A DNA stretch of 64,000 nucleotides from the NCBI RefSeq assembly GCF_007741515.1, contig NZ_CP036263.1, positions 558,001 through 622,000 on the forward strand, in the 5' to 3' direction. The DNA comes from Adhaeretor mobilis (GTDB lineage Bacteria; Planctomycetota; Planctomycetia; Pirellulales; Lacipirellulaceae). The position numbers and the translations under genes were made by a program. The stretch's first letter is position 1. Each line of letters begins with the position of its first letter. Below are positions 3,447 through 25,896 of this stretch, in pieces. The notes beneath the pieces were generated by a model, which searched no databases, was not told where the DNA came from, and was given only the letters and a program-made list of their open reading frames with translations.

Positions 3447-5396
3447 ATGACTACGACTACGACTCTTCCCACTCCGCTGAGCATTCACCCCGATGCGGTG
3501 CCACCGGGGCAGAGTTTCCTCGCTGAACATATTGCTAGAGAGCATGGCCGCGGTGACGACATCTTGGCGTTCGTCTCCATGCGCCAGCGGCTTCTCGCAG
3601 CATCGAACCAGCATGCCGAACAAACCGCCGACCGTCACCGAGATTTCACGCAGCTTCTTAAAAAGCATGAGCTTCTCCAGCCACTCTCTTTTTTCTACGA
3701 GGCACGTAGCGGCGCTCAACTCTATCGTCCTGTGTCTGTAGATTACGAGGAGAAGGCTGGCGGAGGAAAGTCTCTAACTGCAGTATTAGCTCATTCTGAG
3801 AACCAGGGTCAGCATTTGGTCTTGCGTGCTACTAGCGGGGCCGGCAAGACCATCGCAACCAGACGAGCATTCTTTGATTGTTTCTATGGGGTTGTTGGCG
3901 AGCCGAGCTTGCCTGGTTTCTCCCCTTGCAACTTAGATGTACCACCTTTGTTGGAGACACTGAGCGTAGATCTCCAATCGAATGATCCCCCCGACGATAT
4001 CGTGTTACAACTACTTCTTACTCAAGCAAGAATCGCTGTGACGGCTTCGACACTTCGAGCAATGCAGCGTTGGTTGCAGTTTGGACCGCGACTTTTAATC
4101 TTTGTCGATCTCAATAGACTGCCGGAAGCGGCACGCAGAAGACTTGCTCGCAGCTTGGCGAGCTTCTTACAAGAGCATGCTCAGCAAGGCCATAGGCTAA
4201 TCGCAACGTTTCGAACAACCCAATCACTAAAGGAGGATACAACTCTGAGTTCGTTACGACACCTCCGCACGAGCGGGCCACTGTTTGTTCCTTGCAACTT
4301 AGATCCGTTGCCATCGGAAAATGCGGAACACTACCTGAGGGCTTTCTGGGAGTACGACACTTGCCTCGCTGAGGAGTTCGCCCCGCACGGAGCAAAAGCC
4401 GTTGCTCCGCACCTAGTTGATGATCACTTGACATTAGTCAAACGATTCATTGACCGCAATGCACGGGGGAAGGAGAGCCTCGTTTCCACTCCACTATTGA
4501 TGCAATTCGTCAGCGAAATCGAACCCGGAAATAGCCAGCACATCGAAACGGCAGCTGATTTGTATCGTGAGATTGTGAGGAATCACTTGGTGCGCGATCA
4601 AGCAGAATTCAACAACCAACTCCCCGATTTGCTGTTAGGTACTAAGGGTCGAACTCGTTCCCTTGTGGCTCTCACGCGTTTGGCGCTCGCGATGAGAAGC
4701 AGAGGAGTATCGCAACTTGACACAACTGTTGCTCGAAACTTATTGCAGCAGCCTCATGCGACCAACGTAGCCAGCTGGGCGCCCTCGGCTGGATTCTATG
4801 ACTTGCTCAATCCTCAACGCTCGCACTGCTATGTCGAAGCAACTTACGATGAGGCTGAGATCAATTCGCTATTTCAGTTCAGCTTGCTGAGGACTAGTGA
4901 AGATGAGAGGGCCACTACTGGCGTAATCACGTTTCTGCACGACTCCATGATCGACTACTTCTGTGGTGCGGTCGCCCTTGGCGAGTACCTTTCCCCAGGA
5001 TCTCCCGCGCAGGCTCGAACTCATGACGGGACGAACCCACAACGAAGCTTACCAGACGATTGGTATCAAGCTGTGCTTGACGTATTGGTGGGCGACGGAG
5101 TTGATACTCAGGGCTGGCTCAAACCGGGCGGTTTTCTCGCTGGGACGCTCTCAGCCGACGAACTGGAAAAACTTGTTCGGCAAATGCTTTTTAAGGTTAG
5201 TGAGAGCCAACACGTGGCTCTATCAAGAAAATTACTTGACGAGCGGCCTACCTCTGATTCGTCTTCATCAAGGCGACTGGAAGCATATTCCGCTGCCCTG
5301 GTGGGTCGCGTGCTTACCGATGCTCGCTACGAACCGCAACGGACGCGACAACTTATGATCGATGTCCTCATGGACCACCTAGAGACTATTCAATGA
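3447..5396 (+). CDS. STAND/NACHT-like NTPase, paralogue 1 (WD40 array in a separate gene)
   Basis: 649 aa. The N-terminus has a short module shared with the two paralogues at 12545 and 20029 (SFLAEHIAREH near residue 23, FFYEARSG and LYRPV near 82-95). The Walker A loop is ATSGAGKT (128-135). The Walker B strand is LLIFVDLN (216-223), with Asp-Leu-Asn instead of the usual acidic pair, as in both paralogues. An RLIATFRTT strand (250-258) matches the NACHT sensor-1 position, and FLHDSMIDYFCG matches the helical-arm motif F-x-H-x-x-x-x-E-Y-x-A of NACHT ATPases. No membrane segment. It overlaps the WD40 gene by ATGA, so the two are translationally coupled, whereas the paralogues are single fused proteins. 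Predicted role: nucleotide-driven signal switch; the ligand is unknown. Confidence 0.85.
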   Translation: MTTTTTLPTPLSIHPDAVPPGQSFLAEHIAREHGRGDDILAFVSMRQRLLAASNQHAEQTADRHRDFTQLLKKHELLQPLSFFYEARSGAQLYRPVSVDYEEKAGGGKSLTAVLAHSENQGQHLVLRATSGAGKTIATRRAFFDCFYGVVGEPSLPGFSPCNLDVPPLLETLSVDLQSNDPPDDIVLQLLLTQARIAVTASTLRAMQRWLQFGPRLLIFVDLNRLPEAARRRLARSLASFLQEHAQQGHRLIATFRTTQSLKEDTTLSSLRHLRTSGPLFVPCNLDPLPSENAEHYLRAFWEYDTCLAEEFAPHGAKAVAPHLVDDHLTLVKRFIDRNARGKESLVSTPLLMQFVSEIEPGNSQHIETAADLYREIVRNHLVRDQAEFNNQLPDLLLGTKGRTRSLVALTRLALAMRSRGVSQLDTTVARNLLQQPHATNVASWAPSAGFYDLLNPQRSHCYVEATYDEAEINSLFQFSLLRTSEDERATTGVITFLHDSMIDYFCGAVALGEYLSPGSPAQARTHDGTNPQRSLPDDWYQAVLDVLVGDGVDTQGWLKPGGFLAGTLSADELEKLVRQMLFKVSESQHVALSRKLLDERPTSDSSSSRRLEAYSAALVGRVLTDARYEPQRTRQLMIDVLMDHLETIQ

Positions 5397-7465
5397 CTTT
5401 GCCACCAAGTGACAATCAGGACCTCGATCGCAACGGCACCTCTTCCGCTGCCGCCACTTTGTTGGCAGATCAGGCAACAAACTCCAGCCCTTGGATCCGG
5501 CGTATTTGGGGCGTCTGCCCCTCGTTTGATTTGTCGATGTTACTACACGGGGGAGCGGTCACTTGCCTCGCCAAGTTGCCTGATGGTCGCATCGTGAGTG
5601 GGGGGTGGAGTGGTGAAGTCCTCATCTGGGATCCGATTGATGGAGAAGTGATCGAGTGCGTCAAACACGAGGATCGGATTGACGCCCTGAAGGTGCTGGA
5701 GGGGGGGCGTGTCGTCTCGGCGAGTGAGGATGGCGCGGTGAAGGTGTGGTCGCCCGAGCAGTTGACTGAAGAAGCGATCGGCCCCGAGCAAGTACCCACC
5801 GTCGTCAAGCACGAGAGTAGGATTACCGCCCTGAAGGTGCTGGAGGGGGGACGGGTCGTCTCGGCCAGTTACGATGGGGCGGTGAAGGTGTGGTCGCCCG
5901 AGCAGTTGGCAGAAGAGGGAATCGGTCCCGAGCAAGTACCCAGCATCGTCAAGCACGAGCGTTGGATTACCGCCCTGACGGTGCTGGCGGGAGGCCGGGT
6001 CGTCTCGGCGAGTGGGGATGGCGTGGTGAAGGTGTGGTCGCCCGAGCAGTTGGCTGAAGAGGGGATCGGCCCCGAGCAGGTCCATACCATCGTCAAGCAC
6101 GCGGGGGGGGGTACCGCCCTGGCGGCGCTGGAGGGGGGACGGGTCGTCTCGGCCAGTTACGATGGCGTGGTGAAGGTGTGGTCGCCAGAGCAGTTGGCAG
6201 AAGAGGGAATCGGTCCCGAGCAAGTACCCAGCATCGTCAAGCATACGGGGGGGGGGGCCGCCCTGGCGGTGCTGGAGGGGGGACGGGTCGTCTCGGCGAG
6301 TCGGGATGGGGCGGTGAAAGTGTGGTCGCCCGAGCAGTTGGCTGAAGAAGCGATCGGCCCCGAGCAGGTACCCACCATCGTCCAGCACGAGGTTCGGGTT
6401 ACCGCCCTGGCGGTGCAAGAGGGGGGACGGGTCGTCTCGTCCAGTGTCGATGGCGCGGTGAAGGTGTGGTCGCCCGAGCAATTGGCTGAAGAGGGTATCG
6501 GCCCCAAGCAAGTACCCAGCATCGTCAAGCACGCGGGGGGGGTTAACGCTCTGACGGTGCTGGAGGAGGGACGGGTCGTCTCGGCCAGTTACGATGGCGC
6601 GGTGAAGGTGTGGTCACCCGAGCAGTTGGCTGAAGAAGCGATCGGCCCCGAGCAAGTACCCACCATCGCCAAACACGAGCGTAGGATTACCGCTCTGACG
6701 GTGCTGGAGGGGGGACGGGTCGTCTCGGCCAGTGTCGATGGTGCGGTGAAGGTGTGGTCGCCCGAGCAGTTGGCTGAAGAGGGGATCGGCCCCAAGCAAG
6801 TACCCACCATCGTCAAGCACATGTATTGGGTTAACGCTTTGACGATGCTGGAGGGGGGACGGGTCGTCTCGGCGAGTGTCGATGGCGCGGTGAAGGTGTG
6901 GTCGCCCGAGCAGTTGGCTGAAGAGGGGATCGGCCCGGAGCAAGTACCCACCATCGTCAAGCATGCGGCGGAGGGGTCCGCCCTGGCGATGCTGGAGGGG
7001 GGACGGGTCGTCTCGGCCAGTGTCGATGGCGTGGTTAAGGTGTGGTCGCCCGAGCAGTTGGCTGAAGAAGGGATCGACCCCGAGCAGGTCCCTACCATCG
7101 TCAAGCACGAGCGTGCGATCAACGCTCTGACGGTACTGGACGGGGGACGGGTTGTCTCGGCCAGTGCCGATGGTGCGGTGGAGGTGTGGTCGGGGGAGGC
7201 AGTGATGTCCGACGTCTCAACGATTGTAAGTTTTTCTTACGATGTTATCAGTCTTATTGCGTTACAAAGAAAATACGTTATAGCGGCTGGTCGTGACCGC
7301 AAGTTGAGTTTGATCGATTTCGACACCGGCAAGGTGCTTTGCTCCTACCTAGGGGACTCGCCAGCGACCGCACTGGCGGTGTATCCAGACCGGCCCAACA
7401 CATTTCTGGCCGGACTGCAAAGCGGGGCGATTATCATGCTGAGGGTTGAAAACTGGGGAGATTAG
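5393..7465 (+). CDS. WD40-repeat protein, sensor partner of NTPase 1
   Basis: 690 aa and about 14 WD40 blades by count: one diverged blade (residues 50-92), ten nearly identical 48-residue units (93-572), then three diverged blades. Each unit reads KH-xxxx-xAL-xVLEGGRVVSAS-x-DGxVKVWSPEQLAEE-x-IGPEQVPxIV. Fourteen blades would fit two seven-bladed propellers, though that is inference. The residues after KH and the residue before DG vary from unit to unit while the DNA around them is almost unchanged. The gene starts inside the stop of the NTPase (ATGA). It has G tracts of 9, 11 and 8 bases at variable positions. The array closely resembles that of the 12545 gene. Confidence 0.9.
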   Translation: MTLPPSDNQDLDRNGTSSAAATLLADQATNSSPWIRRIWGVCPSFDLSMLLHGGAVTCLAKLPDGRIVSGGWSGEVLIWDPIDGEVIECVKHEDRIDALKVLEGGRVVSASEDGAVKVWSPEQLTEEAIGPEQVPTVVKHESRITALKVLEGGRVVSASYDGAVKVWSPEQLAEEGIGPEQVPSIVKHERWITALTVLAGGRVVSASGDGVVKVWSPEQLAEEGIGPEQVHTIVKHAGGGTALAALEGGRVVSASYDGVVKVWSPEQLAEEGIGPEQVPSIVKHTGGGAALAVLEGGRVVSASRDGAVKVWSPEQLAEEAIGPEQVPTIVQHEVRVTALAVQEGGRVVSSSVDGAVKVWSPEQLAEEGIGPKQVPSIVKHAGGVNALTVLEEGRVVSASYDGAVKVWSPEQLAEEAIGPEQVPTIAKHERRITALTVLEGGRVVSASVDGAVKVWSPEQLAEEGIGPKQVPTIVKHMYWVNALTMLEGGRVVSASVDGAVKVWSPEQLAEEGIGPEQVPTIVKHAAEGSALAMLEGGRVVSASVDGVVKVWSPEQLAEEGIDPEQVPTIVKHERAINALTVLDGGRVVSASADGAVEVWSGEAVMSDVSTIVSFSYDVISLIALQRKYVIAAGRDRKLSLIDFDTGKVLCSYLGDSPATALAVYPDRPNTFLAGLQSGAIIMLRVENWGD
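5669..7108 (+). repeat. Ten tandem 144-bp WD40 units (coding)
   Basis: Units start every 144 bp exactly: 5669, 5813, 5957, 6101, 6245, 6389, 6533, 6677, 6821 and 6965. A further partial unit begins at 7109. Differences between units cluster in the codons just after KH (Glu-Asp-Arg, Glu-Arg-Trp, Ala-Gly-Gly, Met-Tyr-Trp and others) and in the codon before DG. Confidence 0.95.
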
Positions 7466-7484: not shown

Positions 7485-7520
7485 GGAAAAAAATAGCCGT
7501 CAAATGCTCTTCACTTGTAG
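7485..7520 (+). promoter_or_regulatory. Shared island element, copy A
   Basis: GGAAAAA at 7485, ATGCTCTTC at 7504 (19 nt after the first G), then four bases and GTAG at 7517-7520. It lies 48 nt before the 7569 gene. The layout resembles a two-box ECF-sigma promoter, but no transcription start is known. It would begin the 7569-16735 unit. Confidence 0.6.
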
Positions 7521-7568: not shown

Positions 7569-9902
7569 ATGTCATTTCGCTTCTTTGACCGAGATATCCA
7601 CCGCATTCGGCTGCATGGAGGTCGCTGGGCAAAGCCTCCGTTTGACCTTCTGAATTCAATCCAAGAGCACCACACTTACTCCTTGTTCCGCATCGCGCAG
7701 GGGCTTTTTAAACACGAGGCCAAGCGGGATGAGACAGTTCTGCTGGTGCGATGCCATGAGGCTATGCTACGCGCTGAGATTTGGATTCAAAAAGGGTCGC
7801 TCTACTGGATGAGTGAAGAAAAAGCTAAGAGCTTGTTATCGCAAGTCGCCGATTCATTAGACGGGCCGCTGAACATAGATGAACGATTAGAGAGTGTTCG
7901 TGATCAGATAGACCTGGCATTATTACTCTCAACACGAGTCGGAATGGCGCGAGCGATACTTCGCGCGACGGGAAGCAAGAAGGGCTTAGCCAAACTGACA
8001 GGAGTAAACCAAGAGACAATCGATGCTCATCGGAAAACTCGAACCTCACTCGTAAACTCTCTAAACAACTTATGGAGTACGAACAACCCAGGCTTTCACA
8101 GTGCGGAAGCAAATATAGTCTTGTTGACGTGTCTCGGATGGGACGAATCATCTCTCGAAGGTGTTCGTGCAGACACGGGGAACAGGCGTGCCACGGCAAA
8201 CCCTTCTGTTCTTGTGAATGGGAATCATAGCGAAGACGGCGAGAGTAAAGTCGAGGACAGCGAGGAGGACAGCGATGGCGCTGACCGGCAGACGCAAGTA
8301 GACCCTCTAATGGACTTGACCCAAATTGATGCTTGGAACTGGCTGCTAGACTCCACTATTTTGGGCGAGAGGAGAGAGACTCGAATACGCGAAGTATGTC
8401 GTCGCCTTGACAGGCTAACTCACAAATTTGCCGATGCCGGCTTGCGCAATGCCCTGCGCAGTTTTAAGGATAGTTACAAGAGAGACCCAAAGCAGCTTGT
8501 AGAACTAGTTGGGCAATTGCATGAACTTATCGAAAAACTGGAGACTCAACGCGACGAATCCTCTGCGAACATCCAAGAGGCGAGCTTCGCAGATTTGGGC
8601 CTCAAGGCGTATTTCGAAAGTCTACCGGAGGAGCAGGGTTTGAAGTGGCAGCACATAGAGGAGTTGCTCCGAGAGGTAACGACAGAAATGCATCCGACTA
8701 CTCAGGATGAAGAGGACGAAAACAAGTGGTGGCCATTGCATAGGAGCACTGCCAAGTACCGCCTCGACATAAGTGATAATCGTGATCTGCAAAAGATCGC
8801 TGATATCCTCAGTCTAGGCAGCGTGGAAACCATATTGCTGAGATGCTATCGGGAGAGGCATCATCTGAAATCCCACGGGGCATTCGGGACCTGGGTGAGT
8901 TCGGAGACCGGGATGTCCAACAAAAAGGTTTCAGAGAGCGAAGCTTACCGCAACCTTCTGCTTGAAATTTATCGAAACGACGCGATGGTGCGAACTATTC
9001 TCGACGACTTTCTTGGACGTCTTCGCGAAGCTAACTTGCCGGGGGCAGAAGAAGGAAAGCCAAGTGCTAGGGAAGTCACGAAGTTGCTAGTCGATCTCCG
9101 TGCCTATCTAGAGGATTCGAGAAACGGTTTCAAGGACAACCTCGAGCGCATCAAGTCTGGCCACGAGTTGGACGTAGACGACGAGTCGAATTTTAATAAG
9201 AACATTAGGGTACTGATGAGCAAAGTTGAGAGACTATGCGGCTTGATAGACAAAATCTGTAATCAGGGAGGGGTTTCAGAAAAAATGCAGGACTGCATTG
9301 AAGAGACCATTGCTCGTCAAGGCACAATGCAGTTGCAGTGGGAGCGCTTGGAAGTCCAACTCAGCGATCTCAGTCCTACGGATAAACAGTTTCAGTGCTT
9401 TAGTGCTCTGAAGCACTTGCCGGAACCGTTGTCGGAAAGCGACTATTGGTGTGCAGAGAAGCATAGAAAACTCTATGAAGCGATTCTGCAGGCAATCGGG
9501 ACTGAGGAGCAAGCTTCCTCCACGACTCCTACACAATTTGCGTTCTTTGAAACGTGCCTGGGTAGTCACACCAAAGAGGTCGCTGCTCAACTAAGGGAGC
9601 GATTTCCTGAGGCATTTCAAGATGAACGAGAGAAGATTGTAAATGAGTGGTATGAGTGCGAAGTTGCCCACGAATATCTGGTAGACAAAACCGAAGCTGA
9701 TCCAAGTGCAGCGGAGATTGGCGAGCAACATTGGCTTCAGACTTGGCTTCAAGAAGAAAAAACTTGTACCCCAGAGACGGAGTACTTGACCAGGAGCGGG
9801 GAAGTCAAGGATTCCAAGAAAGCTGCGGCTTTGTACGCGGTCACGATGCAATACCTACAGGGATGCATACGGCAACTTCACAAAGTCGGAATCTTGAAAT
9901 GA
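7569..9902 (+). CDS. Large hypothetical protein, 777 aa
   Basis: The start has AAGGAAG 8 nt upstream. I do not recognise a family. The protein looks soluble and mostly helical. Residues about 1-200 form one region with alternating strands and helices (LLVRCHEAMLRAEIWIQ). A low-complexity acidic linker follows (about 220-248, rich in Glu, Asp and Ser), and then long charged helices continue to the end, some with coiled-coil character. No nucleotide-binding loop, metal motif or membrane segment is visible. It is the first gene after shared element A and is followed by the 279-aa unknown, the Lon-like protease and NTPase 2, all in one direction with short gaps, so it probably belongs to the same machine. 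Confidence 0.8.
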   Translation: MSFRFFDRDIHRIRLHGGRWAKPPFDLLNSIQEHHTYSLFRIAQGLFKHEAKRDETVLLVRCHEAMLRAEIWIQKGSLYWMSEEKAKSLLSQVADSLDGPLNIDERLESVRDQIDLALLLSTRVGMARAILRATGSKKGLAKLTGVNQETIDAHRKTRTSLVNSLNNLWSTNNPGFHSAEANIVLLTCLGWDESSLEGVRADTGNRRATANPSVLVNGNHSEDGESKVEDSEEDSDGADRQTQVDPLMDLTQIDAWNWLLDSTILGERRETRIREVCRRLDRLTHKFADAGLRNALRSFKDSYKRDPKQLVELVGQLHELIEKLETQRDESSANIQEASFADLGLKAYFESLPEEQGLKWQHIEELLREVTTEMHPTTQDEEDENKWWPLHRSTAKYRLDISDNRDLQKIADILSLGSVETILLRCYRERHHLKSHGAFGTWVSSETGMSNKKVSESEAYRNLLLEIYRNDAMVRTILDDFLGRLREANLPGAEEGKPSAREVTKLLVDLRAYLEDSRNGFKDNLERIKSGHELDVDDESNFNKNIRVLMSKVERLCGLIDKICNQGGVSEKMQDCIEETIARQGTMQLQWERLEVQLSDLSPTDKQFQCFSALKHLPEPLSESDYWCAEKHRKLYEAILQAIGTEEQASSTTPTQFAFFETCLGSHTKEVAAQLRERFPEAFQDEREKIVNEWYECEVAHEYLVDKTEADPSAAEIGEQHWLQTWLQEEKTCTPETEYLTRSGEVKDSKKAAALYAVTMQYLQGCIRQLHKVGILK

Positions 9903-9954: not shown

Positions 9955-10794
9955 ATGAGAACTAACAGGCATCCGATGTTCGCGAACGTTACGCCACCCG
10001 GGTATTGGAGACCCGAGTGTTTGGGCTCGCCCGACCTGGGTGACGGCTCGATACTCAGGTACTTCCATTCCCTGAAGTTTGCACATTGCCACGAAGCTTG
10101 GGCGGAGAGTGTCCCAGGCGAGCCGCAGGACTGGGGGCTCGGACCCAAAATGAACGAAGCTCTGCACGATCATCTAATTTCGAAGCGAACTGCGGAGCTC
10201 GAATCTCCTGCTATAGCAGAGCCGGCGCTGGTCCATGCTGCGGACGGACACGATGCTATCGTGCCGAGCTTTCTCGTCGTTGATACGCAGCGTGAATGGG
10301 GCATAGGCGATGGCAAGGCAATCGGTGATTCGCAGGTGTCGCCGCCAAGTTGGGCCTTCACTGGCTGTGGCAAAGCTCCTCTGGACCGCATTGACCATTT
10401 TGAAATGAATATACCTAGCGGTCAGACTGCCCATCGAAGGCGCGAAGCGATCGCTCTTGTCCTGACGCAACCGGTAGCCGAGGAACTCGGACGCTTAACC
10501 GGTTTGCTCGCCTCAGGTAAGGGGATCGAAAACCTGGATGACTACCCTGAGATTATCAATGCTGCTTTTGCACCTACGGCTCTCGATCCTGGCGACTTTC
10601 CCTCAAAGGCCGAAAAAAGGATTGCTGTCGGACTAGATCGGACACTTTATTTTGCTCCGGCCATTTGGAGTTCCACAAACTCTGATGGTCGGTTCGCGCA
10701 TGAAATTGACTTGGATGGCGATTGTCCTGGGCTGGAATGGAACACGCTCGTTGTACTTTTTCTTGGTCCAGGGGTCGGTCCAGATCCAACGTAA
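9955..10794 (+). CDS. Hypothetical protein, 279 aa
   Basis: The gene starts 52 nt after the 777-aa gene with an AAGGG site. No family recognised. The N-terminal third is rich in Gly, Pro and Trp (TPPGYWRPECLGSPDLGDG), and the middle and end contain alternating hydrophobic strands (IVPSFLVVDT, AIALVLTQPVAEELGRL, NTLVVLFLGPG). The stop lies 56 nt before the Lon-like start. The conserved-looking N-terminal motif and the His/Cys pair in KFAHCHEAW are worth a remote-homology search. Confidence 0.7.
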   Translation: MRTNRHPMFANVTPPGYWRPECLGSPDLGDGSILRYFHSLKFAHCHEAWAESVPGEPQDWGLGPKMNEALHDHLISKRTAELESPAIAEPALVHAADGHDAIVPSFLVVDTQREWGIGDGKAIGDSQVSPPSWAFTGCGKAPLDRIDHFEMNIPSGQTAHRRREAIALVLTQPVAEELGRLTGLLASGKGIENLDDYPEIINAAFAPTALDPGDFPSKAEKRIAVGLDRTLYFAPAIWSSTNSDGRFAHEIDLDGDCPGLEWNTLVVLFLGPGVGPDPT

Positions 10795-17325: not shown

Positions 17326-17363
17326 AGAAAAAAAAATTGCGTGCATTTGCTCTTCCTTTCTGG
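17326..17363 (+). promoter_or_regulatory. Shared island element, copy C (diverged)
   Basis: AGAAAAAAAAA at 17326, TTGCTCTTC at 17347 (spacing two longer than the other copies), then CTGG where the others have GTAG. It lies 56 nt before the 17420 gene. Confidence 0.4.
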
Positions 17364-17419: not shown

Positions 17420-17587
17420 ATGCGCCCTCAACAAGAAGCAGCCCAACAAGAAGACATTCCGTTTCAAAAAAACCAAGCGTGGCGAGGAGGTTTTTCGTCG
17501 TCAACAGTGCTGACTGGGACAATCGTCCTCATTAGCTTGCTGCTAATCGTTGCGGTGGCAGGCGTTGGCATAGTGCCGCTAGCCTGA
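17420..17587 (+). CDS. Small single-span membrane protein, 55 aa
   Basis: The ATG at 17420 has GGAGAG 6 nt upstream. A hydrophilic Gln-rich N-terminus is followed by one hydrophobic helix (TVLTGTIVLISLLLIVAVAG, about residues 29-50) and a short tail. It would sit in the cytoplasmic membrane. It is the first gene of the unit that also holds the Clp_N-like gene, 23 bp downstream. It may anchor or sense for a partner in the island; no family recognised. Confidence 0.6.
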   Translation: MRPQQEAAQQEDIPFQKNQAWRGGFSSSTVLTGTIVLISLLLIVAVAGVGIVPLA

Positions 17588-18215: not shown

Positions 18216-18251
18216 GGAAAAAGAAGGGCACCAAATGCTCTTCGTTGGTGT
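18216..18251 (+). promoter_or_regulatory. Shared island element, copy D
   Basis: GGAAAAA at 18216, ATGCTCTTC at 18235 (spacing 19), then GTGT at 18248 in place of GTAG. It lies 110 nt before the Pup-like gene and would drive the modifier, ligase and NTPase 3. Confidence 0.55.
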
Positions 18252-18361: not shown

Positions 18362-18535
18362 ATGAAAAAAAAGACGAACGAGATGCCTACTAAGTCGACG
18401 GCCCCTGAGAAGGTTCCCGGCAAGTCGCGTCGCCAAATCCTCAGCGAAGCGATGGAGAAGTCGGAAGGCGACGGCACGTTGAAGAGTGATCCTGTTGGCT
18501 CGCTTGAAAATCGTCGGAATCCTTCCGGCGAGTGA
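18362..18535 (+). CDS. Pup/UBact-like protein modifier, 57 aa, ending Gly-Glu
   Basis: The ATG at 18362 has GGAG 8 nt upstream. The product is highly charged and looks disordered: a Lys-rich start, a central helix (RRQILSEAMEKSEGD) and a C-terminus NRRNPSGE. Pup and UBact modifiers are small, disordered, have one helical stretch and end in Gly-Gly-Glu/Gln or Ser-Gly-Glu/Gln; a final Glu can be ligated directly without deamidation. The decisive context is that the next gene, 43 bp downstream, is a PafA-type ligase homologue. Sequence alone would not identify such a short protein; position plus C-terminus make the case. It contains several lysines of its own. No proteasome subunit gene is in the window. 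Confidence 0.7.
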   Translation: MKKKTNEMPTKSTAPEKVPGKSRRQILSEAMEKSEGDGTLKSDPVGSLENRRNPSGE

Positions 18536-18578: not shown

Positions 18579-19979
18579 ATGACAAACGATGGCCTTCCGT
18601 TTGTGATGGGCGTCGAAGAAGAGTGCCTTACTCTGGGCAGTCACATCGACATGGATCGCATGTTTGTCGCGATTCAATCGCTGGCCCCCACGTTGCGTGC
18701 TTGTCCTTCAGGAATCTTTACACCTCTTGGAAGAATCTATCTTGACGGCTCCCACCTTGAGCTCGCTTCTGCCGAAGCGGGCTCACCATGGATACTCGCT
18801 GATATCGTCGCCAGACAACAACAATTGGTTGCTGAGGCTATCCAGTCAGTAGCTGGTGCAGGCGGCAGTCTGGAGTTTGCGAACATCAACTACAGCGGAC
18901 TACTGCGATCAGGAGCTTGCACTTGGGGGACTCACGAGAACTATCTGGTTAATCGTCCGGTCTCTTGGTTCGCCGAGCAGATGATCCCGTTTCTGTGTAG
19001 CCGTTTCTATGCCGGCAGTGGTGCCGTTCACTGGCCGAGCGGGCGCTATGTAGCTTCTGCACGTGTGCAATTTCTCGCAGCGGAGACAAACGGGAATACT
19101 ACGCGCAATCGCCCGCTCTTCTGCACAGCGAGATCGGACCCTGGTGAAAATGGCAGGGAATTACGTCGTTGCCACCTTGTCTGCGCAGACGGTCATCGGT
19201 CGCCAATCAACTTAGCTTTGCAGTTCGGTGCAACCTCGCTAGTTCTCCATGCGTTGATCGAGAGACCGAAGAAGTTAAAATCGATTCCTCGCCCCAGCGG
19301 AGCTTCCAAGAAACTCTGGCTAGTGTGTGCCAAGCATTTTAACTTCTTGGCAAAGCCAGGAGAGCCCCTTGCAGTTCATCCGGGAGCTATCCAGCTGCAG
19401 CGATTCTATCTGCAGCTCGTGAGCGACTGGCTCGCAGGCTCGAGAGCTGCTCCTGATTGGTCCGACAAAATCGTTGCGCTTTGGCAAGCAACGCTTGACG
19501 CTGTTGAGCAGGGCAACCACCTATGGCTAAGCCAACGGCTGGATGCCTGGATCAAGTATGATCTATTGGATGTAGCACTTGAAGTGATGGGCTCTAACTG
19601 GCGAGAAGCGGCCGATAACCGACTTCTCTCCTCACATTTGACACTGATCTCACAGGACTACCATTGTTTCACAAAAAGCGATTCGATCTTCCAAGTGCTC
19701 TGCGAAAAAGAGGCAATCCTAAGATCACCAAGATTTTTGCCAGTGAACGACCGCTGGAAGATTGCTACCAAGACACGCGCAGCCGCTCGTGCAAAGATGA
19801 TCTGTGAGCATGCCGGCGAAACGGACCTGGTACTCGACTGGAACGGTATGATTAACCTGCAAACGGGTGAGCGTTGGGGACTCGTGGATCCTATGGCAAC
19901 GAGATTTGAACTCCTGCCGCATGCGTCTGACTTTAATCTTGACCGACTTCGCTCGCAGCTCAGTGGCGTAGTCGATTGA
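18579..19979 (+). CDS. PafA/Dop-family Pup ligase homologue
   Basis: 466 aa from the ATG at 18579 (a GTG at 18570 is also possible). It aligns by eye along its whole length with mycobacterial PafA: MGVEEE (10-15, family MGIExE, metal and ATP site), LDGSHLELASAE (55-66), GTHENYLV (117-124, family G-C-H-E-N-Y-L), TTRNRPLF (174-181), RRCHLVCADG (197-206, family RRLHVIxGD), GATSLVL, and a C-terminal RARxx..VDW-type stretch (LVLDWNG). PafA joins the C-terminal Glu of Pup to lysines of target proteins using ATP, in a glutamine-synthetase-like fold. The spacing between the first two motifs is short, without the insertion seen in the depupylase Dop, so a ligase is favoured. It lies between the Pup-like gene and NTPase 3. 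Confidence 0.9.
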   Translation: MTNDGLPFVMGVEEECLTLGSHIDMDRMFVAIQSLAPTLRACPSGIFTPLGRIYLDGSHLELASAEAGSPWILADIVARQQQLVAEAIQSVAGAGGSLEFANINYSGLLRSGACTWGTHENYLVNRPVSWFAEQMIPFLCSRFYAGSGAVHWPSGRYVASARVQFLAAETNGNTTRNRPLFCTARSDPGENGRELRRCHLVCADGHRSPINLALQFGATSLVLHALIERPKKLKSIPRPSGASKKLWLVCAKHFNFLAKPGEPLAVHPGAIQLQRFYLQLVSDWLAGSRAAPDWSDKIVALWQATLDAVEQGNHLWLSQRLDAWIKYDLLDVALEVMGSNWREAADNRLLSSHLTLISQDYHCFTKSDSIFQVLCEKEAILRSPRFLPVNDRWKIATKTRAAARAKMICEHAGETDLVLDWNGMINLQTGERWGLVDPMATRFELLPHASDFNLDRLRSQLSGVVD

Positions 19980-20028: not shown

Positions 20029-23000
20029 ATGCCCTCGACCATGAATCCGCAACAGTGTTTCCTCAGCGATCATTACGTTCGAGAGCAAGATAAATTCGCT
20101 GGCGAAATTCTCGCGATCCGCAGTTTGGTCGATTCCTTTCCCAGTGAGCGTCACGACGAAGCCGCGGGATTATTTACCCCGAAGCGGTTCTTCTACGGAT
20201 TTGACGATCTGTTAAACGTGCCCGCTGAGTCGTTACCCGCATCGACTTACCCTGGTGCTTGGCTTTATGCTCCAGTTAAGACCTACCCTTACAATCCCGA
20301 CAAGCGCGACGGCCGAGATCGCTCTCTCCATGATGGGGCAAGTTTCAGCGAGTTGAGCGAGTTACTGTTGTGGCTTGACGAGCCATCGGGCGATTCATCG
20401 GAAATTTCATCGGCAGCGCATCCCTTTGGCATTTTGCTCACAGCCAAGAGTGGCGCCGGCAAGAGCGTGGCGCAGTTCAAGGCAATGTTCGATTGCCACC
20501 ACGCTCGTGGCGAACAACAACCACGACTGGCAGGCAGACAGTGGTGTCGTCTTCGATCTCCCAAAGGATTGGGTGAAACGTTTACACTCATTGATATGCT
20601 GCCCTTTGCTGAGGACCTTGGCTCAAACAGTGCCCAGCAAGCGCAGCGTCGTCGCGCCATCAACCGTTGGTTGGAGGCGGGGCCGCCGCTACTGATCTTC
20701 TGCGACCTGAACGCAATCGATCGAGAACATGTCGAACAGGTGGCAAACGCCTTACGCGACTTCCAGAACGATCCGCTCCGCCAGCGTCAAGGGCACCGTT
20801 GCGTGGTCGCCTATCGTTCAACCCAGCGCAGCGACACCGCATTTACCACATTGCTCGGTAGTGATGCGTTCCGAGATTTCGAGATGGAGCAACTGCCCGT
20901 TCGCTTAGCGGATGAGTACGTCAGCAACTTGCGAATTATTCGCCAAGCTATAGCAGGGGAAGAATTCGAAGTCGATCTCCAGCAAACCACCAGAATCAGC
21001 GAATTCGCAAACCAGCTACTCATGGCCGATGGTAGCTCGATTATTAGCACGCCGCTGCTGATGCACTTTGCCTCGATCTTGGACGATGCCCAACTCGACC
21101 GCTGTCAGTCACTGAGCGACTTTTACAGTGCAGTCGTGAAAAAGTTGCTGGAGAATAATCACAAGAACTACAGCAATCGCATGAGTGGCGTCTTCGCCGA
21201 TGAAGCAGAGTACAAGACCCGCGTCCAGCTAGCCATGTCACGTGTAGCGCTGGCTATCGTGACTTTGGGAGCTGACGAAACACGGCTAACCGACTTCGAC
21301 CAACTGCTAAGGACTCCCGCTAGCTGGCTTCGGGAGAAGAGCCCACCGGGTCGGTACGATCCTCCGGAGTTGCCGCACTATCTCAGCGGCAGCCTTCTAC
21401 CCAAAGATGCCAAGGAAGCCACAAAACTACGGATAGCGATCAAAGAATATTCACTGTTACGTGGCGAGGGCTCGCAACTGGCGTTTTTGCACGATAGTTT
21501 TTTGTACTATTTCGCGGCGCAAGCGCTCTGGCAACCCGAAAGTGAAGATGTCGATTGGGCCGACGATGCATGGTTCGATAAGGTAGCAGCCATCTTAGCA
21601 AGCGAACCTTTGCGATGGCGTCAGCCCTTGCAGTTTCTTGCTGGTCGCTTGGAGGATAGCGAGCAGTGTCTGCGACTCGTCGAGCGATTGATTCCTGCCG
21701 ATCCCAAACCTGGGCTTACTGAGTTAGTCCAAGTCCTCTGCCGTGAACAAGCCAATGAATCTTCAACCGAAGCGAGCAAGCTCCTCTCCGCGATCCATGC
21801 TGCCACGATTCGCTACGGTTCGTGGTGCCGAGACAACTCAGCTCGGTTGTTTCCGCAAGTCTATCACGAGTTGCGCTGGCGATGGGGAACCGACCAGGAA
21901 AGCTTCCTGAAGTTCGTGGAAACAAGACTTGAATCGCGCCGCAGCCAGCCCGAGCCCATCCGCTGCACGCTGGGCGGCTGGGTAACCGACTCCAATCCAT
22001 CGCTGACGCTAACTGGCGGAGTCAACTGTCTAAGCATCTTGAATGACAAGCTTGTTATCATAGGGTGCGGTGACGGCTACGTTCGCAGTTGGAATCCCAG
22101 CACAGGAGAGCAGCGGGATCTCGTCAAACATGAGAAAGTGGTTACTTCCCTGGAAGTGCTGGAGGGGGGGCGAGTCGTCTCGGGGAGTGAAGATGGTGCG
22201 GTGAAGCTGTGGTCAGCCGAGCAGCGGGTAGCGGGCGCAACCGACCCCGAGCAAGTCCCCACCATCGTTCAGCACGAGGGTGTGGTTACCTCCCTGGTGG
22301 TGCTGGAGGGGGGCCGAGTTGTCTCAGGGAGTACCGATGGCACGGTGAAACTGTGGTATGCTGAGCAGTGGGAAGCAGGCGCATTAGCCCCTGGTCAGGT
22401 CCCCACCATTATCAAGCACGATAAAGGAGTTACTTCCCTGGCGGTGTTGGAGGGAGGCCGCGTCGTCTCAGGGAGTGAAGACGGCGCGGTGAAGCTGTGG
22501 TCAGCGGAGCACTGGGAAGCGGAAGCAATCGACCTGGGGGCGGTCCCCACCATCGTCCAGCACAAGGATGGGGTTACCTCCCTGGCGGTGCTGGAGGGGG
22601 GAAGAGTCGTCTCAGGGGGGGGCGATGGCTTAGTGAAGCTGTGGTCGGCCCAGCAGTGGGAAGCAGGTGCAATCGACCCGAAGAAGGTCCCCACAATTGT
22701 GAAGCACCATGATATGGTTGACTCCCTGGCGGTGCTAGAGGGTGGCCGAGTCGTCTCGGCGAGTTGGCGTGGCGTAGTGAAGCTGTGGTCTGCCGAGGAG
22801 TGGGAAGCGGGTGCAACCGACCCGGAGGAGGTCCCCACCATCATCGAGCACCGTGCTTTTTTTAGCTCCCTAGCAGTGCTGGAGGGCGACCAAGTCGTCT
22901 CGGCGAGTAGGGACGGCGTGGTGAAACTTTGGGCCGCCGACCAGTGGGCAGCGGGTGTAATCGACCCCGAGCAGGTCCCCACCATTGTTCAGTACGGGGG

Positions 23001-24240
23001 TTGGCTTAACTCACTGGCGGTGCTGGAGGGGGGGCGTGTCGTCTCGGGGAGTGACGATGGCTTAGTGAAGCTGTGGTCGGCCGACCAGTGCGAAGCGGGC
23101 ACAACCGACCCGGAGCAGATCGCCACCATTTTCAAGCACAAGAATGGGGTTACTTCCCTGGTGGTGTTGGAGGGGGGGCGAGTCGTGTCGGGGAGTTGGG
23201 ATAGAGCGGTGAAACTGTGGTCGTTAGAACACTTCGAAGCAGTCGCAACCGAACCCGAGCAGGTCCCCGCCATCGTCCAGCACGAGCTTTGGGTTAGCGC
23301 CCTGGCGGTGCTGGAGGGGGGTCGAGTCGTCTCGGGGGGGGGGGATGGCTTAGTGAAGCTGTGGTCGGCCGAACAGTGGGAAGCAGGCGCATTAGCCCCT
23401 GGTCAGGTCCCCACCATTATCAAGCACGATAAAGGAGTTACTTCCCTGGCGGTGTTGGAGGGAGGCCGCGTCGTCTCAGGGAGTGAAGACGGCGTGGTGA
23501 AGCTGTGGTCTGCCGAGGCGTGGGAAGCGGGCGCAACCGACCCCGAGCAGGTCCCCACCATTATCAAGCACGATAAAAGAGTTAATTCCCTGGCGGCGTT
23601 GGAGGGCGGCCGCGTCGTCTCAGGGAGTGAAGATGGCGCGGTGAAGCTGTGGTCAGCCGAACAGTGGGAAGCGGGCGTAACTGAGCTCGATCAGGTCCCG
23701 ACGATCGTACAGCACGAGCGTGCGGCTTGGGGAGGCATTGGCGTTAACGTATTGGCGGTGCTGAAGGGGGGCCGAGTCGTCTCGGGGGGTGACGAGGGCG
23801 CGGTGAAACTGTGGTCAGCGGAGCACTGGGAAGCGGAAGCAATCGACCTGGGGGCGGTCCCCACCATCGTCCAGCACAAGGATGGGGTTACCTCCCTGGC
23901 GGTGCTGGAGGGGGGAAGAGTCGTCTCAGGGGGGGGCGATGGCCTAGTGAAGCTGTGGTCAATCGAGCAGCGGGAGGCGGGAGCAATCGACACCGAGCAG
24001 GTCGCCACGATCGTTCAGCATGGGGGTGCGGTCACCGCCTTGGTGGTTCTGGAGGGGGGCCGCATCCTGAGCGCTGGTGCCGATAACATGTTGCGACTTG
24101 CCGAACTCACCAGCAAGAGTGTCATATGTGAGCATGCTTTTACTGCAAGACCCAGTCATCTTGCCTACGATCAATCCAACTCCATGATCTGGATTGGGTT
24201 CCATGATGGCCACGTCGAGTGCTGGCAAGTGGATCGCTGA
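20029..24240 (+). CDS. STAND/NACHT-like NTPase fused to WD40 array, paralogue 3
   Basis: 1403 aa, 49 bp after the ligase. The N-terminal module (CFLSDHYVRE, LFTPKRFFYGF) is shared with the other two NTPases. Walker A is AKSGAGKS (139-146), Walker B is LLIFCDLN, and the arm motif is LAFLHDSFLYYFAA. The linker CTLGGWVTDSN precedes WD40 blades: one diverged blade, thirteen repeat units (from residue 702) and two diverged blades ending GHVECWQVDR. Its unit family (WSAEQWEAG..DPEQVPTIVQH, VVSGSEDG) differs from that of the other two arrays. Two internal segments have exact copies elsewhere in the array (see repeats). A G11 run lies at 23334. It probably shares a transcript with the Pup-like modifier and ligase. 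Confidence 0.9.
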   Translation: MPSTMNPQQCFLSDHYVREQDKFAGEILAIRSLVDSFPSERHDEAAGLFTPKRFFYGFDDLLNVPAESLPASTYPGAWLYAPVKTYPYNPDKRDGRDRSLHDGASFSELSELLLWLDEPSGDSSEISSAAHPFGILLTAKSGAGKSVAQFKAMFDCHHARGEQQPRLAGRQWCRLRSPKGLGETFTLIDMLPFAEDLGSNSAQQAQRRRAINRWLEAGPPLLIFCDLNAIDREHVEQVANALRDFQNDPLRQRQGHRCVVAYRSTQRSDTAFTTLLGSDAFRDFEMEQLPVRLADEYVSNLRIIRQAIAGEEFEVDLQQTTRISEFANQLLMADGSSIISTPLLMHFASILDDAQLDRCQSLSDFYSAVVKKLLENNHKNYSNRMSGVFADEAEYKTRVQLAMSRVALAIVTLGADETRLTDFDQLLRTPASWLREKSPPGRYDPPELPHYLSGSLLPKDAKEATKLRIAIKEYSLLRGEGSQLAFLHDSFLYYFAAQALWQPESEDVDWADDAWFDKVAAILASEPLRWRQPLQFLAGRLEDSEQCLRLVERLIPADPKPGLTELVQVLCREQANESSTEASKLLSAIHAATIRYGSWCRDNSARLFPQVYHELRWRWGTDQESFLKFVETRLESRRSQPEPIRCTLGGWVTDSNPSLTLTGGVNCLSILNDKLVIIGCGDGYVRSWNPSTGEQRDLVKHEKVVTSLEVLEGGRVVSGSEDGAVKLWSAEQRVAGATDPEQVPTIVQHEGVVTSLVVLEGGRVVSGSTDGTVKLWYAEQWEAGALAPGQVPTIIKHDKGVTSLAVLEGGRVVSGSEDGAVKLWSAEHWEAEAIDLGAVPTIVQHKDGVTSLAVLEGGRVVSGGGDGLVKLWSAQQWEAGAIDPKKVPTIVKHHDMVDSLAVLEGGRVVSASWRGVVKLWSAEEWEAGATDPEEVPTIIEHRAFFSSLAVLEGDQVVSASRDGVVKLWAADQWAAGVIDPEQVPTIVQYGGWLNSLAVLEGGRVVSGSDDGLVKLWSADQCEAGTTDPEQIATIFKHKNGVTSLVVLEGGRVVSGSWDRAVKLWSLEHFEAVATEPEQVPAIVQHELWVSALAVLEGGRVVSGGGDGLVKLWSAEQWEAGALAPGQVPTIIKHDKGVTSLAVLEGGRVVSGSEDGVVKLWSAEAWEAGATDPEQVPTIIKHDKRVNSLAALEGGRVVSGSEDGAVKLWSAEQWEAGVTELDQVPTIVQHERAAWGGIGVNVLAVLKGGRVVSGGDEGAVKLWSAEHWEAEAIDLGAVPTIVQHKDGVTSLAVLEGGRVVSGGGDGLVKLWSIEQREAGAIDTEQVATIVQHGGAVTALVVLEGGRILSAGADNMLRLAELTSKSVICEHAFTARPSHLAYDQSNSMIWIGFHDGHVECWQVDR
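22132..24021 (+). repeat. Thirteen tandem WD40 units (coding), paralogue 3
   Basis: Units start at 22132 and then every 144 bp to 23716; that unit is 162 bp because of an 18-bp insertion (AAWGGIG). The last unit starts at 23878. The stretch 22495-22629 is identical over 135 bp to 23809-23943, and 22366-22486 is identical over 121 bp to 23374-23494. Confidence 0.95.
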
Positions 24241-24253
24241 TGCCGATAGGTCA

Positions 24254-24289
24254 GGAAAAACTTCCTGCCCGAATGCTCTTCTCTCGTAG
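24254..24289 (+). promoter_or_regulatory. Shared island element, copy E
   Basis: GGAAAAA at 24254, ATGCTCTTC at 24273 (spacing 19), GTAG at 24286-24289. It lies 62 nt before the 24352 gene. Confidence 0.6.
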
Positions 24290-24351: not shown

Positions 24352-24846
24352 ATGGCTATCTCGATTCCCCAGTTTGCAGCGTTGCTCGACCAGCAGCGCG
24401 TTCGCTACGACATTGATGAGACCAAAGGGACTGCGACGATTCATTTCAATAATCATGAATCGTTTGTTATCAGGCTCTCTCGCGACGGCAGGACGCTTCA
24501 GTTCACCAGTTCACAACTGGCCGACTTACGTTCGCTCAGTCCTGCGCAGCGACAGCAGTTGCAACGCAAGTTTGCGAGTGTGAATCGCCGCATTCGACCT
24601 GGCCGCTATCGCTGCCAGACCTCCCTAACGGCCCAAGCCACGGTCCACTTGGGCGACCAACCATTGCAGGCGAAAAGCCTTGTGAAGCACTTTGGATTGG
24701 TGCTGGGACTTACGCAGCTCTTCCATGCCGGCATGAACCCCGCAGCGATCCCCCAGTACAGCCGCCTGGCCGCACTGCGTCGCTATCTCAGCCTAACAAG
24801 GCAGCGGTTCGACATCCCCCTGAGCCAGCCCAAGAAAAACTTCTAG
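24352..24846 (+). CDS. YbjN-like protein (type III chaperone-like fold), copy 2
   Basis: The start at 24352 (MAISIPQFAALL) is chosen over the upstream ATG because it lies clear of element E and begins the domain. 164 aa. The order of elements matches the 16848 protein: strands ending in FVIRLSRDGRTLQFTSSQL, a helix with VNRRIRPGRYRC (copy 1: NKRIALGRY), then strands and a helix VHLGDQPLQAKSLVKHFG. The tail is basic with an RQRFDIPLSQPKK end. Identity to copy 1 is low, so they are old paralogues. The role is unknown. Element F begins inside the 3' end of this gene. Confidence 0.5.
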   Translation: MAISIPQFAALLDQQRVRYDIDETKGTATIHFNNHESFVIRLSRDGRTLQFTSSQLADLRSLSPAQRQQLQRKFASVNRRIRPGRYRCQTSLTAQATVHLGDQPLQAKSLVKHFGLVLGLTQLFHAGMNPAAIPQYSRLAALRRYLSLTRQRFDIPLSQPKKNF

Positions 24847-24868
24847 GCGAAATGCTCTTCAACGGTAG
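24833..24868 (+). promoter_or_regulatory. Shared island element, copy F
   Basis: AGAAAAAC at 24833, ATGCTCTTC at 24852 (spacing 19), GTAG at 24865-24868. It overlaps the end of the YbjN-like gene and lies 68 nt before the 24937 gene. Confidence 0.6.
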
Positions 24869-24936: not shown

Positions 24937-25896
24937 ATGAAATCGCATTCCACTAAGCCGCGAGTCGGAATCATTGGCACGCCCGAGGCTGATCGCCTCA
25001 AGCAAGGCAGTCTGGCGGTCGCAGCCCGCGGCTTCCGCAACTTTGTCGAGCACGAGCCTATGACTCTGGGGCTGGTTGGCGACGACCAGAAAGCTCGCGA
25101 AATGCGCTACCGACTTGACGCACGTTCCGAAGACTGGTTGCTGATGACCGGCGGCGTGACGGTGACAAAGCGGCACTGGAAGCAGCAGGGAGACAAGCTG
25201 CGTGCTGTACCGGCCATGATTTCTCAGAAGCTACCGCGGATGCTCGCTGGCTGCGATTGGTGGTACGTCCAGCCCACCCCTGGCAGTGATCTCTCCGCAC
25301 TTCGGGAGATCATGGTTGCTGCGAAAGAATCTGGCACGAAGGTCTATCTGCAGCTTGATGAGCAACAGATTGACTCAGTCGACGAAGTGATCCAGCTCGC
25401 CAGTCAAGCAGACTTCGTGCAAGTCGATGAGACTACGCTGCGTGAGTTGGCCGCTGGCGAAAAGCACCCCGTCGAGGCATTAGCGATCTTGCGAGAGCGA
25501 GGGCTGCACAACATAGTCGCCACGCTAGGTCCAGCTGGCGTACTAGGCTTGGATGAAGGAGAGTGGATGTACGACTTCGGCTGGCGAGTGAAGAAAGCTC
25601 TGCGTCACGAGGCTAGCTCCGTGTTCGGCAGCATCATGGTTGCCAGCCTGGCTGAACAGCGTTCGCCGGACGAGGCGATTCTCAAGTCGAATAAGGCTGC
25701 TGCCGCTCATGTCAGCTACACGTCTTGGCGCGGCCGCAAGGGGCTCGACGCACTCAATGTTGGCAAGCGTCAACGTCCCACTTGGACGCTACCAGCACTA
25801 AGTGAAACACGACAGCTGGTCACCGCGATTGCTGCTGTAGTCGCGTGGGTGATTGCCACAACGGTTGCCGTGGGTATTGGCGGTGCGATTCTGTAA
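24937..25896 (+). CDS. PfkB/ribokinase-fold protein with degenerate active site and C-terminal membrane helix
   Basis: A strong AAGGAGAG site precedes the ATG at 24937. 319 aa. The central part has the PfkB order: AKESGTKVYLQLDEQQID, a FVQVDETTLRELA helix, NIVATLGPAGVLGL (family: T-x-G-x-x-G), then SSVFGSIMVASLAE followed by EAILKSNKAAAAHVSYT. In active kinases the last part begins with G-A-G-D, where Asp is the catalytic base; here the matching segment is SVFG, so phosphorylation is unlikely. A single hydrophobic helix (about 293-317, VTAIAAVVAWVIATTVAVGI) anchors the protein, leaving the domain in the cytoplasm. It may act as a ligand-binding sensor. It is the last gene of the island and is followed by a strong terminator. 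Confidence 0.65.
   Translation: MKSHSTKPRVGIIGTPEADRLKQGSLAVAARGFRNFVEHEPMTLGLVGDDQKAREMRYRLDARSEDWLLMTGGVTVTKRHWKQQGDKLRAVPAMISQKLPRMLAGCDWWYVQPTPGSDLSALREIMVAAKESGTKVYLQLDEQQIDSVDEVIQLASQADFVQVDETTLRELAAGEKHPVEALAILRERGLHNIVATLGPAGVLGLDEGEWMYDFGWRVKKALRHEASSVFGSIMVASLAEQRSPDEAILKSNKAAAAHVSYTSWRGRKGLDALNVGKRQRPTWTLPALSETRQLVTAIAAVVAWVIATTVAVGIGGAIL

What the first reader, a model, noticed from the sequence alone, without database searches (positions are those of the whole stretch)
3447..25896. Candidate new multi-operon surveillance-proteolysis system
Three NTPase-WD40 sensors, a Lon-like protease, a Clp_N-like protein, a Pup-like tag and ligase, two YbjN-like proteins, a one-TM protein, a degenerate membrane PfkB and two large unknowns all run on the plus strand with shared control elements and IS/tRNA edges. 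I infer recognition by variable repeats, tagging and proteolysis. NTPase-centred bacterial conflict systems with repeat sensors are known, but I cannot say that this combination is.
Basis: inference. Interest (0 to 1): 0.95.

Follow-up and report, generated by a model that had tools for sequence, protein, structure and literature searches.

The report
NLR-like receptors with tagging and protease
A gene island in a planctomycete bacterium encodes three receptors predicted to fold like animal NLR immune sensors, with repeats that vary mostly at what is likely their binding face, next to a small Pup-like tag, a Pup-ligase-family enzyme and a likely Lon-type protease, and it would probably tag and destroy foreign proteins.

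Summary
Strong relatives of its NTPase (E<1e-80) occur in 6 genomes including its own: 4 of 248 sampled from its class, plus G578 and G543 among 170 of G238's family. Five of the 6 carry a Pup_ligase gene; G543's draft does not. In G578 one strand reads WD40, tag, ligase, small protein, NACHT-WD40. The NTPase models as NACHT/NLR (NOD2, NLRC4, NLRP3). Its near-identical WD40 repeats vary mainly at sites that match those under diversifying selection in fungal HNWD receptors. Six intergenic gaps share an element with 6 stricter copies genome-wide, 5 of them here. The genome has one PF03136 gene, no proteasomal-ATPase domain hit, and one proteasome-family gene that reads as HslV. My reading: an NLR-type surveillance system whose output is Pup-like tagging and/or Lon-like proteolysis. 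Recognition, tagging, proteolysis and defence are all untested. The Lon call rests on a short region; the Clp_N call is unsupported; the 777-aa protein has no detected relative. Nine paper searches gave nothing relevant joining pupylation to NACHT receptors or phage defence.

The parts
3447..5396 (+). NACHT/NLR-type NTPase, 649 aa, no repeats of its own
   Evidence: AF2 model pLDDT 74; best VIA matches NOD2, NLRC4, NLRP3; P-loop and Walker B Asp kept in all 10 aligned rows
5393..7465 (+). WD40 repeat protein, 690 aa; 11 repeats matched by the pattern used; overlaps the NTPase gene by 4 bases
   Evidence: WD40 1.7e-54
7502..7512 (+). shared intergenic element, copy 1, 67 bases before the 777-aa start
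7569..9902 (+). U777, unknown; same position as U530 (G238), U520 (G417), U539 (G543) but no detectable similarity to them
   Evidence: no family; no homologue among scored candidates; 0 of 247 other genomes of the class sample
9955..10794 (+). U279-family protein, 279 aa
   Evidence: relative in G543 E 7e-13; G238 U295 linked through G543 (7e-5)
10851..12527 (+). likely Lon-type protease, 558 aa from the ATG; candidate Ser239/Lys281 pair
   Evidence: relatives in G543, G238, G417
12545..16735 (+). NACHT-WD40 receptor; 13 repeats matched by the pattern
16763..16773 (+). shared element, copy 2
16848..17312 (+). YbjN-like protein 1, 154 aa
   Evidence: YbjN 0.011, below cut-off; related to YbjN-like 2 and to a G543 protein
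17345..17355 (+). shared element, copy 3 (variant TTTGCTCTTC)
17420..17587 (+). 55-aa ORF with one hydrophobic stretch
   Evidence: TM by eye
17611..18207 (+). 198-aa protein of a family found in G238, G417 and G578 islands; Clp_N label unsupported
18233..18243 (+). shared element, copy 4
18362..18535 (+). Pup-like tag, 57 aa, C-terminal NPSGE
18579..19979 (+). Pup-ligase-family enzyme, 466 aa
   Evidence: PF03136 6.6e-44; profile matches PafA 4b0t 1.2e-39, Dop 2.2e-36; groups with ligases
20029..24240 (+). NACHT-WD40 receptor, 1403 aa; 12 repeats matched by the pattern
24271..24281 (+). shared element, copy 5
24352..24846 (+). YbjN-like protein 2, 164 aa
   Evidence: related to YbjN-like 1, E 2e-9; no YbjN Pfam hit of its own
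24850..24860 (+). shared element, copy 6
24937..25896 (+). partial PfkB-like protein with hydrophobic C-terminus, 319 aa
   Evidence: PF00294 1.1e-4, below cut-off; no relative seen in G238 or G417 regions

Best explanation
The island encodes a multi-operon surveillance system in which receptors predicted to fold like NLR immune sensors likely bind foreign proteins through varied WD40 surfaces and would then switch on a Pup-ligase-family enzyme with its glutamate-ending tag and a likely Lon-type protease, so that the tagged proteins are probably destroyed. Shown: gene content and order; a shared intergenic element; recurrence of many of the same parts in related islands; grouping of the enzyme with Pup ligases rather than Dop; tags ending in glutamate; repeat variation concentrated at a few sites; one PF03136 gene and no proteasomal-ATPase domain hit in the genome. 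Inferred: recognition of phage or other foreign protein; NTP-driven receptor assembly as a platform; transfer of the tag; degradation by the Lon-like protein, which shows no ATPase domain of its own, so that the receptor platform or another unfoldase would have to feed it; peptide handling by the YbjN-like proteins. With no Dop-type gene found, tagging would be expected to be one-way.
For: NLR fold. Variation at five repeat sites that match, by a recalled register, five of seven high-dN/dS sites of fungal HNWD receptors. Ligase of the PafA side with an adjacent tag. 7 of 7 tags found in the NACHT-plus-ligase genomes end in E. NACHT/ligase association: 4 of 4 strong NACHT genomes are among the 20 of 248 with PF03136, chance 3.1e-5. 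One-strand G578 series of WD40, tag, ligase, 185-aa protein, NACHT-WD40. Three tags in the G238 region. YbjN-like, U279-family, Lon-like, NACHT order in G543. Shared element. One PF03136 gene, no PF16450, proteasome-family gene reads as HslV.
Against: No functional data. G543 has NACHT and Lon-like genes but no PF03136 hit in its draft. In G428 ligase/tag and NACHT sit on different short contigs, so linkage there is untested. G417's tag candidate is about 8 kb from its ligase. The Lon label rests on about 55-75 residues; in G543 AhpC ranks just above Lon in the PDB search (0.016 vs 0.018); the Lys is Arg in G417; AF2 of the Lon-like protein failed (pLDDT 31). The repeat sites were chosen after seeing the data. 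The association test does not correct for kinship. The element is absent from the G238 and G417 regions. No PADLOC model hits anything but the Lon stretch.
Confidence: 0.45

Rival explanations
1. Lon-driven transcription switch: receptor activation makes the Lon-like protein cleave a neighbouring regulator (the U777-position protein or a partner), releasing a sigma-like activity that turns on the island's own promoters, comparable to CalpL in type III CRISPR; tagging would be a separate or later output.
For: The best PADLOC match of the Lon-like protein is CRISPR-Lon, 2.8e-4. The U520 protein next to the G417 Lon-like gene has a weak sigma-70 region 4 match, 0.0031, below cut-off. Six gaps share a promoter-like element. 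The CalpL comparison uses the abstract of PMC12751052 in a listing and recall.
Against: U777 shows no sigma or DNA-binding family and no similarity to U520. No SAVED or CARF match outside the Lon stretch. It leaves the tag and ligase unexplained.
Confidence: 0.2
2. Neighbours without a joint pathway: NACHT-WD40/Lon-like defence genes and a tag/ligase module that acts elsewhere, kept together in one mobile or defence island.
For: Order and content vary between islands. G543 has NACHT and Lon-like without a ligase in its draft. Related ligases also occur in two-enzyme loci with ThiF and AAA genes.
Against: One-strand series in G578; association in three taxonomic families; three tags in the G238 region; element before tag, YbjN-like, U777 and other units.
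Confidence: 0.15
3. Self/non-self recognition between cells or protein quality control rather than phage defence: the same receptors, tag and protease sense kin-type or damaged proteins.
For: Closest repeat pattern is in fungal HNWD receptors that control hyphal incompatibility. YbjN-like proteins relate to peptide-binding chaperones (TY-Chap1 hit 0.012 in G543; PMC9503650 passages).
Against: Patchy presence: no NTPase, Lon-like or PF03136 hit in the 12 sampled relatives of its own family, which suits an accessory island more than core quality control. Not decisive.
Confidence: 0.15

Closest known systems
Bacterial NACHT (bNACHT) anti-phage proteins, e.g. bNACHT25 (PMC12169576, title and start of abstract in listings)
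   Same: NACHT NTPase proposed as sensor; here by predicted fold
   Different: Several receptors with WD40 repeats in one island with a tag, a ligase and a Lon-like protein
Fungal HNWD NLRs HET-D/HET-E (PMC12222747, passages)
   Same: NACHT-WD40 architecture; highly alike repeats; variation at matching sites (register recalled)
   Different: No HET domain hit; bacterial; in an island with tag, ligase and protease
Pup-proteasome system of actinobacteria (PMC2588565, passages)
   Same: PF03136 enzyme and an adjacent small protein ending in G[EQ]
   Different: No proteasomal ATPase domain hit, no second PF03136 gene; the proteasome-family gene reads as HslV
Proteasome-free Pup ligases of Rhodopirellula and Plesiocystis (PMC2588565, passages)
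   Same: Planctomycete Pup/ligase pair not linked to proteasome genes
   Different: Those ligases carry an insertion of four TM segments and sit by a membrane-protein gene; the window's ligase is compact and sits by NACHT receptors
Ubl plus Pup systems of Planctomycetes (one sentence in Kaur et al. 2020, PMC7159879, passages)
   Same: Same ligase clade; G238 and G578 also have a JAB-ThiF protein near the island
   Different: Two PF03136 enzymes, mostly Q-ending tags, ThiF and AAA genes; no NACHT-WD40 relative found in G266. That these loci are the published ones is my inference
CalpL / CRISPR-Lon and SAVED-Lon effectors (PADLOC hit; PMC12751052 abstract in listing)
   Same: Lon-type protease without an AAA+ domain in a defence setting
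   Different: No SAVED/CARF match; a NACHT receptor would be the trigger
UBact of Gram-negative bacteria (recalled; not read here)
   Same: Small tag with C-terminal G[EQ] and a PafA-type ligase
   Different: Recalled as linked to proteasome genes; not compared by sequence here

Membership tests
Bacterial NACHT/NLR receptors | P-loop and Walker B of an active NTPase | tested here: met
   G131, G133, K134 and D221 invariant in 10 of 10 aligned rows
Bacterial NACHT/NLR receptors | NLR fold (NACHT, winged helix and helical domains) | tested here: met
Bacterial NACHT/NLR receptors | match to the Pfam NACHT model | tested here: inconclusive
   0 families at E<=0.1 for the 649-aa protein; the family may be too diverged for the model
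Bacterial NACHT/NLR receptors | NTP-driven oligomerisation on ligand binding | not testable with these tools
   needs biochemistry
Fungal-type HNWD receptors | NACHT plus highly alike WD40 repeats | tested here: met
   mean DNA identity 0.82 (24 repeats) and 0.74 (12 repeats), up to 0.99
Fungal-type HNWD receptors | excess amino-acid variation at surface sites of the repeat | tested here: met
   pN/pS 1.63 vs 0.43 and 0.88 vs 0.39; sites chosen after seeing the data; register to HNWD recalled
Fungal-type HNWD receptors | HET effector domain | tested here: not met
   no HET hit in the receptor without repeats, 0 families; so a similar sensor, not a member
Pup-conjugation systems | PF03136 enzyme | tested here: met
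   6.6e-44
Pup-conjugation systems | adjacent small protein ending in G[EQ] | tested here: met
   17 of 19 distinct motif-bearing short ORFs in the loci examined are in tag positions
Pup-conjugation systems | ligation of the tag to lysines | not testable with these tools
   needs an assay
Pup-proteasome system | 20S proteasome and Mpa/ARC ATPase | tested here: not met
   no PF16450 in the genome; the one PF00227 hit reads as HslV; genome completeness 92.29 percent
Pup-proteasome system | Dop beside PafA | tested here: not met
   one PF03136 gene in the genome, on the ligase side of the tree
Lon (S16) proteases | Ser-Lys pair in an S16-type domain | tested here: inconclusive
   Ser in 4 of 4 and Lys in 3 of 4 relatives; family hits weak and below cut-offs; AF2 failed
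MoxR-vWA ternary conflict systems | MoxR AAA+ and vWA genes | tested here: not met
   no such domain in the ten island proteins scanned; AAA_5 and a weak vWA gene do sit in the G238 region
CalpL-type Lon effectors | SAVED or CARF nucleotide sensor | tested here: inconclusive
   only the Lon stretch of those models is matched; the C-terminal half has no assigned fold

The most novel reading that the evidence does not exclude
A bacterial immune pathway in which NLR receptors with an evolving WD40 face act as the substrate receptors of a protein-tagging enzyme: non-self proteins bound by the repeats are irreversibly pupylated by a Dop-free ligase with a ready-made glutamate tag and degraded by a proteasome-independent Lon-type protease, a prokaryotic counterpart of NLR sensing joined to a ubiquitin-ligase-like output.
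Probability: 0.3. Interest if true: 0.95.

Novelty: new variant of a known kind. Interest (0 to 1): 0.82.

Why it matters
If true, it joins two themes not linked in the papers I could search: NLR-type immune sensing and Pup-type tagging. It would give pupylation a role outside the proteasome, say what single, Dop-less planctomycete ligases do, and supply naturally varied WD40 faces coupled to a tagging enzyme that can be tested in a laboratory host. The split between E-ending tags at one-enzyme loci and mostly Q-ending tags at two-enzyme loci is a concrete chemical prediction.

Tried and rejected
Clp_N: no such Pfam hit for the 198-aa protein or its relatives and no PDB relative for a 5-row profile; label dropped, conservation kept.

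U777 as a homologue of U530/U520/U539: no similarity above decoys; kept as positional counterparts only. U234 (G417) likewise shows no similarity to the U279 family.

Lon fold: AF2 failed, so no fold search was run on it; the two-row Lon profile gave only chance PDB hits; the G543 protein ranks AhpC (0.016) just above Lon (0.018). An earlier count gave Lys for G417; the four-row alignment shows Arg.

Viral contigs: 18 stretches matched a ligase pattern, none encodes a relative. The shared element was sought in the G238 and G417 regions and not found.

E/Q tag rule: one exception, L085 (two enzymes, E-tag). 8 of the 9 two-enzyme loci with a tag found end in Q; L084 (two enzymes) and L031 gave no tag.

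Weak partial NTPase hits (E 1e-4 to 1e-3) in G294, G337, G427, G178 and G608 were left out of the counts. Tag background: 21 motif ORFs, 2 of them repeats because L035 and L118 are one contig; of 19, 17 are in tag positions.
Full report
Place and content. The window is 558001-622000 of a single-contig 6.0 Mb genome. The island lies between a decayed IS3-type reading and a tRNA-Pro gene and runs on the plus strand. It holds three NTPases with WD40 repeats (one split into two overlapping genes), a Pup_ligase (PF03136, 6.6e-44), a 57-aa protein ending in SGE directly before it, a likely Lon-type protein, two YbjN-like proteins and several unknowns.

Repeats. 36 repeats matched by a pattern are mostly 48 aa apart. 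Mean DNA identity is 0.82 among the 24 repeats of two genes and 0.74 among the 12 of the third, up to 0.99. Variation sits at unit positions 12, 13, 14, 16 and 31, that is H+1, H+2, H+3, H+5 and the residue before the conserved Asp. pN/pS there is 1.63 against 0.43 elsewhere (24 repeats) and 0.88 against 0.39 (12 repeats); 0 and 1 of 10000 random five-position sets reach the same pN. The sites were picked after seeing the data, so the random sets only describe the contrast. Fungal HNWD repeats are classified by positions 10, 11, 12, 14, 30, 32 and 39 for their high dN/dS (PMC12222747, passages); by a recalled register the first five are the same sites.

Tag and ligase. The ligase is the only PF03136 gene of the genome. 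In a 36-row tree it falls, with the G238, G417 and G428 enzymes, in a 15-row clade (100/100) with the ligases of two-enzyme loci and L031, apart from the Dop-like partners; the four do not form one group by themselves. Seven tags, all ending in E, were found in the five genomes that have both NACHT and ligase: window 1, G238 3, G417 1, G428 1, G578 1. They lie close to the ligase in window, G238 (one), G428 and G578; G417's is about 8 kb away. Two G238 tags share 94 percent of their DNA with pN/pS 0.34 in the tag frame (13 changes); one antisense frame scores 0.35, the other four frames 0.85 to 1.42. Of 9 two-enzyme loci with a tag found, 8 end in Q. This fits a Dop-less ligase whose tag needs no deamidation. 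The genome gives no hit for the proteasomal ATPase domain PF16450, and its one proteasome-family gene reads as HslV.

Protease. The 558-aa protein has its family signal in a region of about 55-75 residues: ChlI 1.9e-4 and Lon_C 0.054, LonB 6.6e-4, CRISPR-Lon 2.8e-4, all below curated cut-offs where these exist; 5 of 5 PDB sequence hits at E<=10 are Lon. Ser239 is kept in 4 of 4 relatives and Lys281 in 3 of 4. In G543 the PDB search ranks AhpC just above Lon. AF2 failed. I treat the label as likely.

Recurrence. In 248 genomes drawn from the class, strong NTPase hits (E<1e-80) are in G000, G238, G417 and G428; three more hits are weak and partial. PF03136 is in 20 of the 248, including these 4; the chance of 4 of 4 is 3.1e-5 without correction for kinship. 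In the 12 sampled relatives of the window's own family none of the NTPase, Lon, U777 and PF03136 queries hit. The Lon profile, made from the window and G238 alone, hit only those two of 248; the G417 and G543 proteins were recognised later by position and similarity. Among 170 genomes of G238's family, G578 and G543 were added; G578 has a ligase, G543 none in its draft. In 294 genomes of the phylum the NTPase gave no further strong hit.

Gene orders. G578: WD40, tag, ligase, 185-aa protein, NACHT-WD40 on one strand; a second contig carries the end of a protein that resembles the Lon-like C-terminus by eye, then NACHT, then WD40. G543: YbjN-like, U539, U279-family, Lon-like, NACHT. G238: AAA_5, weak vWA, Sel1, tag, ligase, U530, U295, Lon-like, NACHT, WD40, with five more NACHT genes, a NACHT fragment, two more tags and two 216-aa relatives of the 198-aa protein nearby. 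G417: tag, NACHT-WD40, ligase on the opposite strand, U520, U234, Lon-like, NACHT on the opposite strand, 190-aa protein. G428: NACHT-WD40 and ligase/tag on separate short contigs. U777 and the Lon-like protein found only themselves among the scored candidates from 5.8 billion proteins; that search needs shared exact words and missed the G238, G417 and G543 relatives of the Lon-like protein.

Control. WWTGCTCTTC occurs 6 times in the window, all in gaps of the island, 0.74 expected, 67-129 bases before six starts, with four adenines 12-15 bases upstream in all six. The stricter AATGCTCTTC-N4-GTR occurs 6 times in the genome, 5 in the island; the reversed pattern 0 times. The first operon (3447) has no such copy; a one-mismatch copy at 3309 points the other way. 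The element was not found in the G238 or G417 regions.

Literature. Nine searches of the open library gave nothing relevant joining pupylation with NACHT receptors or phage defence. One paper holds both 'pupylation' and 'NACHT' (PMC8460736, listing only, a predictor of lysine modifications) and one holds 'prokaryotic ubiquitin-like protein' and 'anti-phage' (PMC10693628, listing only, a mycobacterial regulator). The other listings were cut at 15-25 rows where more papers matched. Iyer et al. 2008 already describe planctomycete Pup ligases without proteasome linkage (passages), and Kaur et al. 2020 mention Ubl systems coupled with Pup conjugation in planctomycetes (passages); the ThiF/AAA two-enzyme loci here look like the latter. 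The window's type differs by its NACHT-WD40 receptors and the missing Dop.

Judgement. That this is a real, recurring and probably co-regulated gene system I hold at about 0.9; that it works by NLR-triggered tagging and proteolysis at 0.45. Its biological target is open.

Noticed in passing
L106:1712-3490 (G238) and L139:1138-2886 (G578): JAB-ThiF fusion proteins (Prok-JAB plus E1-like, 44 percent identical to each other) lie near both NACHT/tag islands; none among the window's island proteins scanned.
   Followed up: partly
L081/L082 (G266), L032-L034, L036-L039, L084, L085: A second locus type with two PF03136 enzymes, mostly Q-ending tags, and in G266 ThiF and AAA proteins; one copy (L032) is in a Gemmatimonadota MAG.
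   Followed up: partly
L031:4093-6803: A ligase of this clade sits beside a weak vWA protein (PF13519 0.0053, below cut-off), without a tag found on the short contig.
   Followed up: no
L079:8434-10533 (G238): The vWA-type protein carries an HExxH-like stretch by eye, next to an AAA_5 gene; possibly a MoxR-vWA pair joined to the island.
   Followed up: no
window 3309-3319, minus strand: One-mismatch copy of the shared element pointing away from the first operon; its role is unclear.
   Followed up: no
L118:3009-3920 (G428): A protein that looks by eye like an ECF sigma factor lies near the ligase; not scanned.
   Followed up: no
window 484-1752 and 27968-31411: Flanking genes look ordinary: lactate racemase N-terminal domain and a biotin-dependent (pyruvate) carboxylase.
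   Followed up: yes
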